From a virus: 42,860 nt of DNA. The notes beneath the pieces are model-generated. The model did no database searches. It was not told the origin of the DNA and saw nothing but the letters and a program-made list of their open reading frames with translations. Each line of letters begins with the position of its first letter. The first letter of the stretch is position 1. Positions 12,197 through 42,428 of this stretch are shown here, in pieces. A program made the position numbers and the translations under genes. The stretch lies in IMG/VR virus record IMGVR_UViG_3300007509_000015, positions 1-42,860 of that record, one strand, 5' to 3'.

Positions 12197-13483
12197 TTAC
12201 TTAAACCCTAAAAATTGATAATTTGCACCAAACTTAATATCATAAGCAGGACGTTCCCAATAATATAAATATCTACCTTCAGTAAATATCCCGAAGTTGT
12301 CTTTAATCTTTATTCCAAATATAACACCGAAATCATAATCGTTCCAATCATGCCATAATGGTTCTTCAAACTCAAATTCGTTAGCCTCTTTATCAGTAGT
12401 CTCTATCATATCCAAGTAGAGTTGAGCATTGTTGAATGAGTATTTGTCGTGCCCGTAATGGTATGGTAACCAGTTTCCCCAAGTATGTAACCACCAATTA
12501 TCACTATAATGATAATAATCTAATCCCAATACTATTGAAGTTTCTCGTTGATATCCTAAATCCCTTTTTAAACCATCAATATAATCTTCAAGTAATTTTG
12601 GAAAGTGATATTGAAAAAATTCTCTGTCCGTCCATGCTTTAACTTCACCACTCTCATCTAACCAAAAATAATCATATCCGATAAATTCACCATTTCCATT
12701 AAAGAATGGTCCGTCACCCGGAACAGGCTTCCAGTCATTATCTGGTTCACTCCAGTATACTAATTGTCCGTCAATATAATATCCACTTCCATCTGATAAT
12801 ATCCATCTTTGGTCATCCCATCCGAAAGCATCTTCTGCAAAATCCCACCAAGAGCCACGATACCAAGAAGTATCTAACACCATAGCGTCAAATCCGTAAA
12901 CTGGGTGTTGTCTGTGCTTTACACCAATGGATAAATTTAAACCATTGATAAAATCTGGACTATACTTAAATCGTAAATCACCTTGTCCGTATTCTACTTC
13001 TTCTAATCCTAATTCTGTATATCCTGCTTTGATTAAAAACCAATCACCTGTATATCTCAACCAGTATTCTTGGTTTAAATAATCATCACCCCATTGCCTA
13101 CCTTGTGAAAATTTAATTAAATATTCCCAACCAGTAACTCTACCAAACGTAGCACTTTCGTTAGCCGATTGTTCTGAACCATCATACCAACTGCCACCAT
13201 TTCCAGCATTCTTTATACCTTTCTTTGACTCGTAATTAAATCTACCAATTTTACGAAGTCCAAATGAAGTTTGAAAATCTGGATTCAATTCCATTTCTGT
13301 TCGTTCAATTTCTAATTCACCGGTCGATAATCCACCTGTAATAGCAAATCTATCGTCTTGGTATCTTGGAGCGTGTAGACTAAATGATGCGTAGGCAGTT
13401 GAATACTTAAAAAAGTTTAATATTCCTTCTTGACTAAATAATGTTGTTGATAATATAAATCCTATAAGTAATTTCTTTATCAT
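12197..13483 (-). CDS. exported beta-barrel-like outer-membrane protein
   Basis: A 428-residue protein with a clear signal peptide (MIKKLLIGFILSTTLFSQ, cut probable before Q18). The mature part is very rich in Trp, Tyr, Phe and Asp, with repeated alternating strands such as GLNLSIGVKHR, ETSIVLGLDYYHY, FGVIFGIKIKDNFGIFTEGRYLYYW. It ends in a strand-like YDIKFGANYQFLGFK. This is the pattern of a Gram-negative outer-membrane barrel, rare in phage genomes. No OmpA-type or TonB-type domain is visible. Neighbours encode another exported protein and a membrane protein, suggesting envelope remodelling, receptor masking or superinfection exclusion. A virion surface protein is the alternative, though the signal peptide argues against it. 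Confidence 0.65.
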   Translation of the reverse strand: MIKKLLIGFILSTTLFSQEGILNFFKYSTAYASFSLHAPRYQDDRFAITGGLSTGELEIERTEMELNPDFQTSFGLRKIGRFNYESKKGIKNAGNGGSWYDGSEQSANESATFGRVTGWEYLIKFSQGRQWGDDYLNQEYWLRYTGDWFLIKAGYTELGLEEVEYGQGDLRFKYSPDFINGLNLSIGVKHRQHPVYGFDAMVLDTSWYRGSWWDFAEDAFGWDDQRWILSDGSGYYIDGQLVYWSEPDNDWKPVPGDGPFFNGNGEFIGYDYFWLDESGEVKAWTDREFFQYHFPKLLEDYIDGLKRDLGYQRETSIVLGLDYYHYSDNWWLHTWGNWLPYHYGHDKYSFNNAQLYLDMIETTDKEANEFEFEEPLWHDWNDYDFGVIFGIKIKDNFGIFTEGRYLYYWERPAYDIKFGANYQFLGFK

Positions 13484-38977: not shown

Positions 38978-38984
38978 TTTATAG

Positions 38985-39405
38985 TGGACCCGGGGAGAAT
39001 CGAACTCCCGTCCGGTATGTCTAAAACAACAAGTCATTTACAGCTTAGTCAATTTCCATTAGTAGTTATTGACAAACAACTATGTGGATTCCTTTTACAC
39101 AGAACATATCCTGTAACTGACAGATTTGTTTATTCTCTAATCTATGAACGAGTTACGTTTAACTTATTTTATGCTCGGGTGTTAAACAACCCAAGAACCT
39201 ACGCTGATGCGTATGTTGGTTGGTAATCTGAAGTAGGTTCAACGAAGTTGTCGAATCCCATTTCTGAATTAGCTAGATGCCAATCCACTACCAACCCGTC
39301 AAGCGAATTATCGCCATTTGAGTTTGTGAGTATTTTGTAACGAGACCTACTCAATCTCTGCTGCACTTTATTGTCAAATAACACCCGTCGAAACCAGTCG
39401 GGCCC
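38985..39405 (-). ncRNA. ssrA: tmRNA (ssrA), phage-encoded
   Basis: A 421-nt RNA with a tRNA-like end. The 5' GGGCCCG pairs with 3' CGGGTCC (7-bp acceptor, one G-U), followed by discriminator A with CCA not encoded (ACT). The T-arm is GGGAG-TTCGATT-CTCCC (38993-39009), abutting the acceptor exactly. The 5' side reads GACTGGTTTCGACGGG, the tmRNA hallmark. Long-range helix H2 can form: ACAATAAAGT (39365-39374) with ACTTGTTGT (39026-39034). A tag frame lies in between (39199-39273), its end inside a perfect TACGC-ATCA-GCGTA hairpin. tmRNA with SmpB rescues stalled ribosomes and tags products for proteolysis. It starts 5 nt after a small gene stop and ends 7 nt before the methyltransferase start, so is cut from a longer transcript. 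Confidence 0.92.
39199..39273 (-). other. tmRNA tag-peptide reading frame
   Basis: A resume codon GCT at 39271-39273 follows CATCTA. The frame encodes 24 residues beginning ANSEMG, containing an acidic middle (DNFVEPTSD), and ending YASA before TAG. Most bacterial tags are 8-15 residues and end in (A)LAA; the small/hydrophobic YASA end is still a plausible protease degron, and longer tags are known (for example in mycoplasmas). The exact resume codon is inferred. Confidence 0.7.
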
Positions 39406-39410
39406 TAATT

Positions 39411-39569
39411 TTACCATAAATCTTCTTCTTCTAAATCTTCATCTTTTCTGTATGCTTCGAGTGGATCATCATTTTCATATAATAAATCTTCAATCAATTC
39501 TTTAACTATTTCCCAATCCTTCTCTTCTATAGCATTTCGTAATATCTCTATTACCTTACCTATATCCAT
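39411..39569 (-). CDS. small acidic hypothetical protein
   Basis: A 52-residue protein, MDIGKVIEILRNAIEEKDWEIVKELIEDLLYE, then an acidic tail DEDLEEEDLW. AGGAG lies 6 nt before its ATG at 39567-39569. Two amphipathic helices with the pattern of a small helical-bundle adaptor. It ends 5 nt before the tmRNA 5' end, so the two share a transcript. No family recognised; the tight linkage to the tmRNA is notable. Confidence 0.7.
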   Translation of the reverse strand: MDIGKVIEILRNAIEEKDWEIVKELIEDLLYENDDPLEAYRKDEDLEEEDLW

Positions 39570-39944: not shown

Positions 39945-41138
39945 CTAATTCATTAAGTGTGGTGACGCTTCAATTTTTCCAGCGTTTGTTACTTGAATAA
40001 ATTCACATTTGATTTGAAATTCTTCTATGTTATTTGCCCCCACATAAGACATAGAAGAACGTAATCCATCAGAAATATCATTAAGTATTCTCTTGGTTTT
40101 ACCTTTATATTCTACTCTAAAACTATAACCCTCTATGTTTTTCTTATCATCTCTTTTTATCTTACTTTCGTGTGATGCTGACCCAGCATATCTTTTATAT
40201 AATCTTTCGTTTGGCCAGAATCCGTCTTTGTGAATTTCTCCAGGAGTTTCTTTTGTACCCGATAACAACGATCCCAACATAACACTATCAGAGCCAATGC
40301 CAATAGATTTACAAATATCAGCAACATACCTAATCCCACCGTCAGCAATAACGGGAACGTCATAATCATCAGCAGCAATGCAACAATCTTGAATGGAAGT
40401 GATATTAGGAACTCCAACGCCCGTTTGAATTCTGGTGGAACAGCTGCTCCCTCCCCCAATTCCACATCGCAATCCATCCGCTCCCCATTCACATAAATCT
40501 CTTGTTGCTTCTTTTGTTGCAATACTGCCCCCGATGATTTCAACATTGTGTCCAAGTCCATTTTTTAATCTCCTAAATGCATCTTTTACTAATTTATGGT
40601 GACCATGTGCTACATCAATGAGTAACACATTACATCCATTATTTACTAATTCTTGGGCTCGTTCTAAATAATCTCCTGTAACTCCTATTGCAGCACACAA
40701 TGGTTTCTTTAGCCACTGTTTATTCATCTTTATCATTTCATCTGTAAATGATAATTCATCTTTTAGATCATCCCAATCATCTTTATCTGGTGGATTATTA
40801 ATACTATAACTATTTCTCCACCGTTCCCAAGTATCTTCTAATGTTCTATCCATTCCACCTATCTTGAAAAAACTTTCCCATTCTCTATAAAGTCGTTTCA
40901 TCATAAGTGATTGTTCTTCTATTGTATTAAATCTATGTATTACTCCAACACCTCCCCACTCCATCATTTCTTTTGCCATTTCATATTCTGTTACAGTGTC
41001 CATTGGTGATGAAACTATTGGAATAGTTATTTCAGTATTTTTTGTAAACTTTGTCGTGATATTTATATTATTTCTGGATAGAATATCACTGTAAGCTGGG
41101 ATGAGATTTATATCATCATATGTTAATGCTTTTCTCAA
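39945..41138 (-). CDS. IMP dehydrogenase / GMP reductase family enzyme
   Basis: A 397-residue TIM-barrel enzyme. Landmarks: LTYDDINLIPAYS at the N-terminus, IVSSPMDTVTE (40-51), catalytic loop GGGSSCSTR with Cys233, GVP after it, IADGGIRYVADICK (D266-G-G), MLGSLLSG, the flap-like RYAGSASHESK (316-326), and a C-terminal GLRSSMSYVGA and VTNAG...ASPH stretch. IMPDH oxidises IMP to XMP for GTP synthesis, while GMP reductase runs GMP to IMP; the C-terminus looks closer to IMPDH. The usual CBS pair is absent, replaced by ~65 residues rich in Trp and Lys/Asp. The start is TTG at 41136-41138 with GGAAGG 8 nt upstream. A host-derived nucleotide-metabolism gene. Confidence 0.88.
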   Translation of the reverse strand: MRKALTYDDINLIPAYSDILSRNNINITTKFTKNTEITIPIVSSPMDTVTEYEMAKEMMEWGGVGVIHRFNTIEEQSLMMKRLYREWESFFKIGGMDRTLEDTWERWRNSYSINNPPDKDDWDDLKDELSFTDEMIKMNKQWLKKPLCAAIGVTGDYLERAQELVNNGCNVLLIDVAHGHHKLVKDAFRRLKNGLGHNVEIIGGSIATKEATRDLCEWGADGLRCGIGGGSSCSTRIQTGVGVPNITSIQDCCIAADDYDVPVIADGGIRYVADICKSIGIGSDSVMLGSLLSGTKETPGEIHKDGFWPNERLYKRYAGSASHESKIKRDDKKNIEGYSFRVEYKGKTKRILNDISDGLRSSMSYVGANNIEEFQIKCEFIQVTNAGKIEASPHLMN

Positions 41139-41296: not shown

Positions 41297-41436
41297 TTCC
41301 ATTTTCCCGTTCTTCTATTATATTTTGGTTTACTTTTAATACCAAAAAACCCATCTATAAATTTAGAATCAAAAAATAGTAATATTATTATTAATCCTAA
41401 TCCAGATAAAATTATTTTTGTAAAAATATCTAACAT
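41293..41436 (-). CDS. small single-span membrane protein
   Basis: A 47-residue protein: MLDIFTKIILSGLGLIIILLFF forms a membrane segment, followed by a very basic tail (DGFFGIKSKPKYNRRTGKWK). It starts on the stop codon of the AAA+ gene (TAATG at 41436) and ends in an ATGA overlap with the 53-residue gene. Positive-inside topology would put the tail in the cytoplasm. Function unknown. Confidence 0.65.
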   Translation of the reverse strand: MLDIFTKIILSGLGLIIILLFFDSKFIDGFFGIKSKPKYNRRTGKWK

Positions 41437-42428
41437 TAAAATCCGGTACTTTTCTTTCCACGAAACTCCTTTTCATAATTTTCAGAGTGTTCTTGTTTAG
41501 CTCTCATAGTATTTATTCGTTTAATAGTTTCATCATAATCTAAATCAAATACTTCTACTGCTATAATCAACTCTTTAAGGTGTGCAAGAGTCCAAGCGTC
41601 TGTTTCTTTTGCCCAACCTTTAATTTGTGGTTTGGATAATGATTTTGATTTCTTTGTTAAATAAAGTATTCTATCGTTATATGATGGAACACCAACATAA
41701 GAAACTCTGTCAAAACGAGATGGCCTGTTAATTATTCTATCGGGTAAATCTTCTGGATAGTTAGTTGTGGCTATTACTATTGTATTAGAATGTTGAATAG
41801 ACCCATCCAAAAACTCTAATACTGCTTGCTCTTCGTGTCTATCTTTAATCAAACTATCAATATCTTCCATTACTACCAATACTTTTCTATTTGGTTCTAT
41901 ATTTTTGAATGAGCTAAGTGCTCCCATTAGATTATAATTGAATACAAATACAATGTTTCCTTGTGCTATGAAATCCTTGATGATAAATGAAACAGTACAG
42001 GTTTTACCGCCGCCTGGAGGTCCCCAAAGTAAAAACCCTCGTTTGTGTGGTTCTCCACGATCTAAATATCTACCTTTCATTTTCCAAAAAATTTCAAATT
42101 CATCTATAACTGTATCTGCAATTGAATCTGGAAATCGTATTAGTTCAGACATATCTAAATGTTCTTTACTGAAAAAAGTTCCGTATTGATCTTCACTTGC
42201 TTTATACAATCCAGGTGGTAATGTTTCAATAGTTTTACTTGAAGGTCTATAATTAGAACCATGTTCTATATTATATTGACAGAAATACCGTTCTCGTAGT
42301 TTTGCTGCTTCATATTCTCCTACAGGCATTTCTTCATCATAAACAGTATCAAAATCTAATGCTATATTTGGAACATCACGAGATGATCTAACTGTTTCTA
42401 ATACTTTTTCTAATCCTTTTCTTGCCAT
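41436..42428 (-). CDS. AAA+ family ATPase
   Basis: A 330-residue protein with a full AAA+ core: Walker A GPPGGGKT (136-143), Walker B VLVVMEDID (183-191, E188/D189), sensor-1 ATTNYPE with N223, and arginine-finger-like RPSRFDR (235-241). The ~120-residue N-terminal part has no recognised domain. It resembles classic single-ring AAA proteins (BCS1/FtsH-like ATPase core) rather than a clamp loader or T4 gp41/44. Lies in the auxiliary region with metabolic and membrane genes; GGAG precedes the ATG by 9 nt. Likely a remodelling ATPase with an unknown target, perhaps membrane-linked given its small membrane-protein neighbours. Confidence 0.85.
   Translation of the reverse strand: MARKGLEKVLETVRSSRDVPNIALDFDTVYDEEMPVGEYEAAKLRERYFCQYNIEHGSNYRPSSKTIETLPPGLYKASEDQYGTFFSKEHLDMSELIRFPDSIADTVIDEFEIFWKMKGRYLDRGEPHKRGFLLWGPPGGGKTCTVSFIIKDFIAQGNIVFVFNYNLMGALSSFKNIEPNRKVLVVMEDIDSLIKDRHEEQAVLEFLDGSIQHSNTIVIATTNYPEDLPDRIINRPSRFDRVSYVGVPSYNDRILYLTKKSKSLSKPQIKGWAKETDAWTLAHLKELIIAVEVFDLDYDETIKRINTMRAKQEHSENYEKEFRGKKSTGF

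What the first reader, a model, noticed from the sequence alone, without database searches (positions are those of the whole stretch)
38985..39405. Phage-encoded tmRNA with an unusually long, atypical tag
The sequence shows a perfect tRNA-like end (7-bp acceptor, 5-bp T-stem with TTCGATT loop), the GGTTTCGACGGG hallmark, a matching H2 long-range helix, and a hairpin around the tag stop. The tag is 24 residues and ends YASA rather than ALAA. A phage-supplied tmRNA could rescue ribosomes during host mRNA decay, or divert tagged products to or away from host proteases by changing the degron. tmRNAs are known in a few phages but are rare.
Basis: partly seen in the sequence, partly recalled or inferred. 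Interest (0 to 1): 0.88.

Follow-up and report, generated by a model that had tools for sequence, protein, structure and literature searches.

The report
Phage tmRNAs with long two-part tags
A marine virus of bacteria carries its own ribosome-rescue RNA, and this RNA would add an unusually long, two-part, conserved peptide label (38 amino acids, against about 10 normally) to the proteins of stalled ribosomes; the same label recurs in dozens of related viruses and was not found in any bacterium searched.

Summary
The tmRNA is real: Rfam tmRNA, 90.8 bits, window 38982-39405, MINUS strand. ARAGORN misses it. The tag is misread in the finding: it starts at GGC and has 38 residues, GDNSLDGLVVDWHLANSEMGFDNFVEPTSDYQPTYASA, not 24. 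Seventy IMG/VR loci encode this tag; 56 complete, distinct tmRNAs have tags of 34-43 residues made of a near-invariant N-module (GDNSL[DE]GLVIDWHLA), a variable linker and a C-module (QPTYAYAA). Codons outside the search pattern show protein-level selection (pN/pS 0.20). The reading frame is also under RNA-level selection: it folds far better than synonymous recodings (mean z -4.5) and has a covarying helix joining codons 7-10 to the Gln-Pro-Thr codons. Relatives at the same locus have ordinary 7-9-residue tags starting at the aligned place. The only candidate host found, and its family, has 9-residue tags. Best explanation: a working tmRNA using host SmpB, whose tag combines a C-terminal degron with a second recognition module, by analogy with the long Lon-read tags of Mollicutes. 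The partner of the N-module is unknown. New variant of a known kind.

The parts
38982..39405 (-). one-piece tmRNA gene (424 nt)
   Evidence: cmscan RF00023 90.8 bits, E 3.7e-34, model 1-374; identical in L002, relatives in L004-L009
39399..39405 (-). acceptor stem 5' strand GGGCCCG
   Evidence: pairs 7/7 with 38986-38992; G3-U70 in 56/56 family members, 8 acceptor pair types
38986..38992 (-). acceptor stem 3' strand CGGGTCC, followed by ACTA (CCA not encoded)
   Evidence: 2 of 56 relatives encode CCA
38993..39009 (-). T-arm GGGAG-TTCGATT-CTCCC
   Evidence: 5/5 pairs; 14 T-stem types in the family
39327..39358 (-). pseudoknot PK1: H3 GAGA/TCTC (39355-39358 with 39342-39345), H4 TGAGTA/TACTCA (39348-39353 with 39327-39332)
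   Evidence: pseudoknot at this place in 56/56, H4 changed in compensating ways (TGAGT/ACTCA, TGAAC/GTTCA, TAGGTC/GACCTA)
39202..39315 (-). tag reading frame, 38 codons: GDNSLDGLVVDWHLANSEMGFDNFVEPTSDYQPTYASA; stop TAG at 39199-39201
   Evidence: protein-level selection
39262..39315 (-). N-module, codons 1-18 (GDNSLDGLVVDWHLANSE)
   Evidence: S4 L5 G7 L8 D11 W12 H13 A15 invariant in 43 distinct sequences
39302..39315 (-). 5-bp hairpin holding the resume codon (GGCGA/TCGCT)
   Evidence: 98.4% of cells paired, C-G to U-A change on both sides in 4 sequences
39286..39296 (-). 5' strand of the helix inside the tag ORF (GGTTGGTAGTG, codons 7-10)
39218..39228 (-). 3' strand of that helix (GATTACCAACC, codons of D-Y-Q-P)
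   Evidence: columns 27/103 show A-U 22, C-G 11, G-C 5, G-U 5, U-G 3
39200..39213 (-). hairpin at the tag stop (H5-like)
   Evidence: TACGC-ATCA-GCGTA
39414..39569 (-). small acidic ORF (52 aa) ending 5 nt before the tmRNA; linked to tmRNA in the family
   Evidence: also before the short-tag tmRNAs L077 and L078; no Pfam or PHROG family

Best explanation
It is a functional phage-encoded one-piece tmRNA. It is probably transcribed together with a small acidic ORF and a DNA methyltransferase gene, processed, charged with alanine (G3-U70) and used with the host's SmpB. A ribosome stalled on a broken message switches to the GGC codon and adds Ala plus 38 residues. The tag is bipartite. Its C-terminal module (Q-P-T-Y-A-[YSL]-A-(A)) is the ordinary hydrophobic-Ala-Ala type of degron. 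The conserved N-module (S-L-x-G-L-[VD]-I-D-W-H-[LM]-A) is a second, specific recognition element that brings the tagged protein to a protease, adaptor or other partner, across a flexible linker of variable length. A stem inside the reading frame folds the extra 75-100 nt into one hairpin, so that the long insert fits in the mRNA-like loop. SHOWN by sequence: tmRNA structure; tag frame and start; selection on peptide and on RNA; restriction to phages within the collections searched. INFERRED: expression, charging, use of host SmpB, protease targeting, and what the N-module binds.
For: RF00023 match and matches over the cut-off in all 20 relatives tested. Fifty-six distinct complete genes, with 14 T-stem types and 8 acceptor types that keep pairing, and G3-U70 in all. 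PK1 with compensatory changes. Tag frame: pN/pS 0.27 in frame against 1.27 and 1.01 in the other frames, which hold stops; 0.20 for codons that were no part of the search pattern. Members found through a sigma-like gene, not through the tag, also carry the module: L203, L237, L244, L273 and the divergent L212 GEIELAGLVIDWHIFDNDRV...YQPTYAYA. Short-tag relatives at the same locus keep the GGC start and the -YA end (L077 GNTANFAYA, L245 GTQFNYAYA), so the long part is an insert between two ordinary tag ends. Internal helix: mean z -4.5 against synonymous recodings; 31 cells with changes on both sides against 8.0 in shuffles, 0/500. Mollicutes have a longer ssrA tag ending NYAFA that is read by Lon (PMC9382460): a precedent for lengthening a tag to engage another protease.
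Against: No transcript, charging or tagging data. The host is unknown: the only lead is one 7.5-kb phage contig binned with the MAG TMED198. No SmpB, ClpP or Lon C-domain was found in 16 phage records, all of which may be fragments, so the partner must come from the host or is unrecognised. AlphaFold gives the tag little structure (mean pLDDT 60.5), which neither supports nor excludes a docking peptide. The window's -YASA lacks the final Ala-Ala.
Confidence: 0.58

Rival explanations
1. The N-module is not for degradation: it diverts tagged proteins to another partner (a phage protein, the sliding clamp, the membrane) or shields them from host proteases until another factor acts.
For: The module is phage-specific within the collections searched and is as strongly conserved as a docking motif. 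SL[DE]GL loosely resembles clamp-binding peptides (recalled from memory, not tested).
Against: The C-terminal end keeps the degron pattern (last residue Ala in 55 of 56, YAYAA commonest), which points to proteolysis. No phage partner was identified.
Confidence: 0.2
2. The insert is mainly an RNA element: a stable hairpin in the mRNA-like domain, for example to resist nucleases or to shape the tmRNA, which happens to be open in frame.
For: Strong excess of folding over synonymous recodings and covariation across the internal helix.
Against: In unpaired columns too, third codon positions vary most (mean entropy 0.92 bits against 0.46 and 0.17 at positions 1 and 2). Leu14 uses TTA, TTG, CTA and CTT. 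pN/pS is 0.20 in unascertained codons.
Confidence: 0.1
3. Ribosomes skip the hairpin (translational bypassing as in T4 gene 60), so the real tag is about 11 residues (GDNSL...TYAYAA).
For: The helix joins codons 7-10 to the Q-P-T codons, so that the two ends of a normal short tag are brought together.
Against: The supposedly skipped codons are conserved as amino acids. No matching take-off and landing codon pair was seen on inspection of the alignment.
Confidence: 0.05
4. A decaying host tmRNA captured by the phage, without function.
For: tmRNA genes are common integration and capture sites (established knowledge).
Against: Dozens of diverged copies keep all tRNA-like pairs, PK1 and the open tag frame. 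The tag differs from the 9-residue tags of the one candidate host family.
Confidence: 0.02

Closest known systems
Standard one-piece bacterial tmRNA (Rfam RF00023)
   Same: tRNA-like domain, GG-UUCGA hallmark, G3-U70, PK1, resume codon at the aligned place, stop in an H5-like hairpin
   Different: tag 34-43 residues instead of the most frequent 10 (PMC11915505); an extra helix inside the tag ORF; weak or absent matches in the later pseudoknot region of the model
Mollicutes ssrA tag read by Lon (Mesoplasma florum)
   Same: longer tag, aromatic-Ala C-terminal end (NYAFA there, -PTYAYAA here) (PMC9382460)
   Different: different internal sequence; chromosomal gene in bacteria lacking ClpXP, not a phage gene; the Lon link is untested here
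E. coli AANDENYALAA tag with an SspB-binding N-part and a ClpX-binding C-part
   Same: two recognition parts in one tag (PMC9382460)
   Different: 11 residues without a spacer; SspB or ClpX recognition is not shown for this tag
Previously known phage tmRNAs (mycobacteriophages, phage G, Melnitz two-piece tmRNA)
   Same: phage-encoded tmRNA genes (PMC4131195, PMC9004378)
   Different: a different phage group; Melnitz is two-piece and has a glutamine riboswitch; the DWH tag has no match among 50,697 phage records except one chance-level alignment

Membership tests
tmRNA (RF00023) | covariance model score above gathering threshold | tested here: met
   90.8 against 47 bits; 20 of 20 relatives over the cut-off
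tmRNA (RF00023) | alanine acceptor: 7-bp acceptor with G3-U70, T-arm | tested here: met
   56/56 family members have G3-U70; 7/7 acceptor pairs in all but one
tmRNA (RF00023) | pseudoknot PK1 upstream of the resume codon | tested here: met
   56/56, with compensatory changes; 35/56 with H4 of 6 bp or more against 3-8/56 in shuffles
tmRNA (RF00023) | pseudoknots PK2-PK4 | tested here: inconclusive
   model aligns there with low posterior; no separate test made
tmRNA (RF00023) | open tag frame from the resume codon to a stop, ending in hydrophobic/Ala residues | tested here: met
tmRNA (RF00023) | SmpB partner | tested here: inconclusive
   no SmpB in 16 phage records; must be supplied by the unknown host
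tmRNA (RF00023) | transcribed, alanylated, tags nascent chains | not testable with these tools
   needs infected cells
Mollicutes-type Lon tag | recognition by Lon through internal and C-terminal residues | not testable with these tools
   analogy only; no Lon C-domain in 16 phage records
two-piece (permuted) tmRNA | permuted order of domains | tested here: not met
   one-piece order, full-length match to RF00023

The most novel reading that the evidence does not exclude
Phages have repeatedly evolved tmRNAs whose tags are long, conserved, dual-coded peptides (DWH family 34-43 residues; FTF-DAMAF family 23-29 residues in 36 loci) that reprogram the fate of every rescued nascent chain, by sending it to a phage-chosen partner rather than by simply adding a host-like degron.
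Probability: 0.3. Interest if true: 0.85.

Novelty: new variant of a known kind. Interest (0 to 1): 0.64.

Why it matters
The 2025 tmRNA database holds 79 phage sequences (PMC11915505). This scan adds 56 distinct complete genes of one tag family, plus a second tag family in 36 loci. A conserved peptide module unique to phage tmRNAs makes the old question of why phages carry tmRNA directly testable: find what binds GLVIDWHLA. The reading frame is also a clear case of one stretch selected both as peptide and as RNA fold. In the records checked, ARAGORN either misses these genes or calls the tag short, so they are probably under-annotated.

Tried and rejected
Tag of 24 residues: rejected, wrong start. 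ARAGORN tag for L008/L009 (VNDYQPTYAYA) and L194 (EYDYSP...): rejected, since conservation and the aligned start lie at GGC. Bypassing and decay: rejected (see rivals). Search for the tags in 50,697 phage records: no match, or one chance-level alignment. Search in about 85,000 bacterial and archaeal species: one real hit, a phage contig in MAG TMED198; two Pedobacter hits are short partial matches (16 and 14 residues), taken as chance and not followed. Phage SmpB, ClpP, Lon C-domain: none found. Small upstream ORF as the module's partner: unlikely, because it also precedes short-tag tmRNAs; no known family; AlphaFold gives a helical hairpin, pLDDT 75. Whole-tmRNA consensus fold over the full alignment: too variable, only part of H2 and the T-arm recovered. 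Codons 1-8 in tags lacking the first search pattern: pN/pS 0.81 with low divergence, so protein selection there is not shown apart from RNA selection.

Full report
What was checked. The window is an IMG/VR virus record of 42,860 bases, linear, and the genes around the locus are T4-like in type (baseplate wedge, SbcC-like nuclease, primase). Where relatives carry a capsid gene, it is a T4-type gp23 nearest to an uncultured 484-kb phage (53%), Microcystis phage Mel-JY01 (51%) and Flavobacterium phage immuto (49%). The tmRNA stands at 38982-39405 on the minus strand, with 90.8 bits for RF00023 against a gathering score of 47. ARAGORN reports nothing in the window.

The tag. The Rfam alignment puts GGC (39313-39315) on the resume codon of the model. 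Read from there, the frame gives 38 residues, GDNSLDGLVVDWHLANSEMGFDNFVEPTSDYQPTYASA, then TAG. The start is supported by distance (75-80 nt from TCGA across the family), by the short-tag relatives that use the same GGC (L077 GNTANFAYA, L245 GTQFNYAYA), and by in-frame conservation that begins exactly there.

A family. Relatives of the downstream methyltransferase gene led to tmRNAs at the same place. A search with three tags gave 70 viral loci. In 56 of them the whole tmRNA is present and distinct (this count includes the copy in the MAG TMED198 contig): tags of 34-43 residues (median 37), acceptor stem and T-stem paired in all (one acceptor with 6 of 7 pairs), 14 T-stem types, 8 acceptor types, G3-U70 in all 56, and a PK1-type pseudoknot in all 56 with compensatory changes. 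The tag has three parts: an N-module with S4, L5, G7, L8, D11, W12, H13 and A15 invariant; a linker variable in length and sequence; and a C-module that mostly reads QPTYAYAA.

Selection on the peptide. In the N-module, pN/pS is 0.27 in frame and 1.27 and 1.01 in the other two frames, which hold stops in nearly all sequences. Because the search used peptide patterns, the test was repeated on codons 9-16 of tags that do not contain the second pattern: 0.20. The same test for codons 1-8 gave 0.81 at low divergence, so the first eight codons cannot be credited to protein selection alone. Loci found through a sigma-like gene instead of the tag also carry the module, in forms that match neither pattern (L203, L212, L237, L244, L273).

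Selection on the RNA. Fifty tag frames fold with a mean z of -4.5 against synonymous recodings. The resume codon sits in a 5-bp hairpin. Codons 7-10 pair with the codons around Q-P-T, and the third base of codon 9 covaries with the codon before Gln: GUA with UAC, GUC with GAC, GUG with CAC, GAU or GAC with GUU (read from the alignment). For the whole structure, 31 cells change on both sides against 8.0 (sd 2.1) in shuffles, 0 of 500, and slid partners do worse. The shuffle control does not correct for relatedness, but the slid control does. So the same bases carry a peptide and a fold.

Where it came from. Short tags at the same locus share both ends with the long ones (G-[DN].. and ..YA), which suggests that the long part is an insert into an ordinary tag; the direction of change was not tested on a tree. 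Among about 85,000 bacterial and archaeal species only one real hit was found, a 7.5-kb phage contig binned with MAG TMED198. That MAG's own tmRNA, and those of its family, encode 9-residue tags such as ADYGYAAAA. It is a host lead, not a host assignment.

Mechanism. The most likely reading is an ordinary trans-translation RNA that borrows host SmpB, with a tag that has two recognition parts. The C-part looks like a degron. The N-part behaves in evolution like a docking motif, separated from the C-part by a linker whose length does not matter. The nearest precedent is the longer Mollicutes tag read by Lon (PMC9382460). Which protein binds the N-module is not known; SmpB, ClpP and Lon C-domains were not found in 16 phage records.

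A second tag family. Loci near the sigma-like gene also led to a different long tag, AEE[KL]SSFTF[ED]DAMAFVGADYAVAA (23-29 residues), in 36 viral loci with intact acceptor and T-arm wherever the contig is long enough. A 484-kb phage has a third kind, GVNNADYESAGFTAEDFAQMDGESLYHGSERKPAAV. Long tags in phage tmRNAs may therefore be recurrent.

Limits. All records are metagenomic and may be fragments. PK2-PK4 were not tested separately. That 43 residues is longer than any tag described before could not be checked against the tmRNA database; 10 is the most frequent length (PMC11915505).

Noticed in passing
L299-L334 (for example L301:2501-2572): A second family of phage tmRNAs with 23-29-residue tags AEE[KL]SSFTF[ED]DAMAFVGADYAVAA; 36 loci, no match in isolated phages.
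   Followed up: partly
window 39414-39569 (minus strand) and equivalents: A small acidic ORF (about 45-55 aa, helical hairpin predicted) ends -8 to +14 nt from the tmRNA 5' end in most family members and also before short-tag tmRNAs; in the loci searched it was found only near tmRNAs.
   Followed up: partly
L292:1501-1612 (LR756508 414804-414915) and L293:1501-1637 (LR756511 2250-2386): Short RNAs of 112 and 137 nt that score as tmRNA (58.2 and 50.4 bits) but have no room for a tag: tRNA-like domain only, as reported for phage DS6A; both megaphages also have a full-length tmRNA.
   Followed up: no
L290:1501-1947 (LR756508, 484-kb phage): Full-length tmRNA with another long tag, GVNNADYESAGFTAEDFAQMDGESLYHGSERKPAAV (36 residues), ending PAAV.
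   Followed up: no
window 39945-41138 (minus strand): IMP dehydrogenase / GMP reductase-like gene (Pfam PF00478, 346 bits) about 540 nt upstream of the tmRNA.
   Followed up: no
window 41436-42428 (minus strand): AAA+ ATPase (PF00004) about 2 kb upstream of the tmRNA; function unknown.
   Followed up: no
window 12197-13483 (minus strand): Protein with a signal-peptide-like N-terminus and beta-barrel-like C-terminus by eye, no Pfam family; possibly an outer-membrane-type protein in a phage.
   Followed up: no
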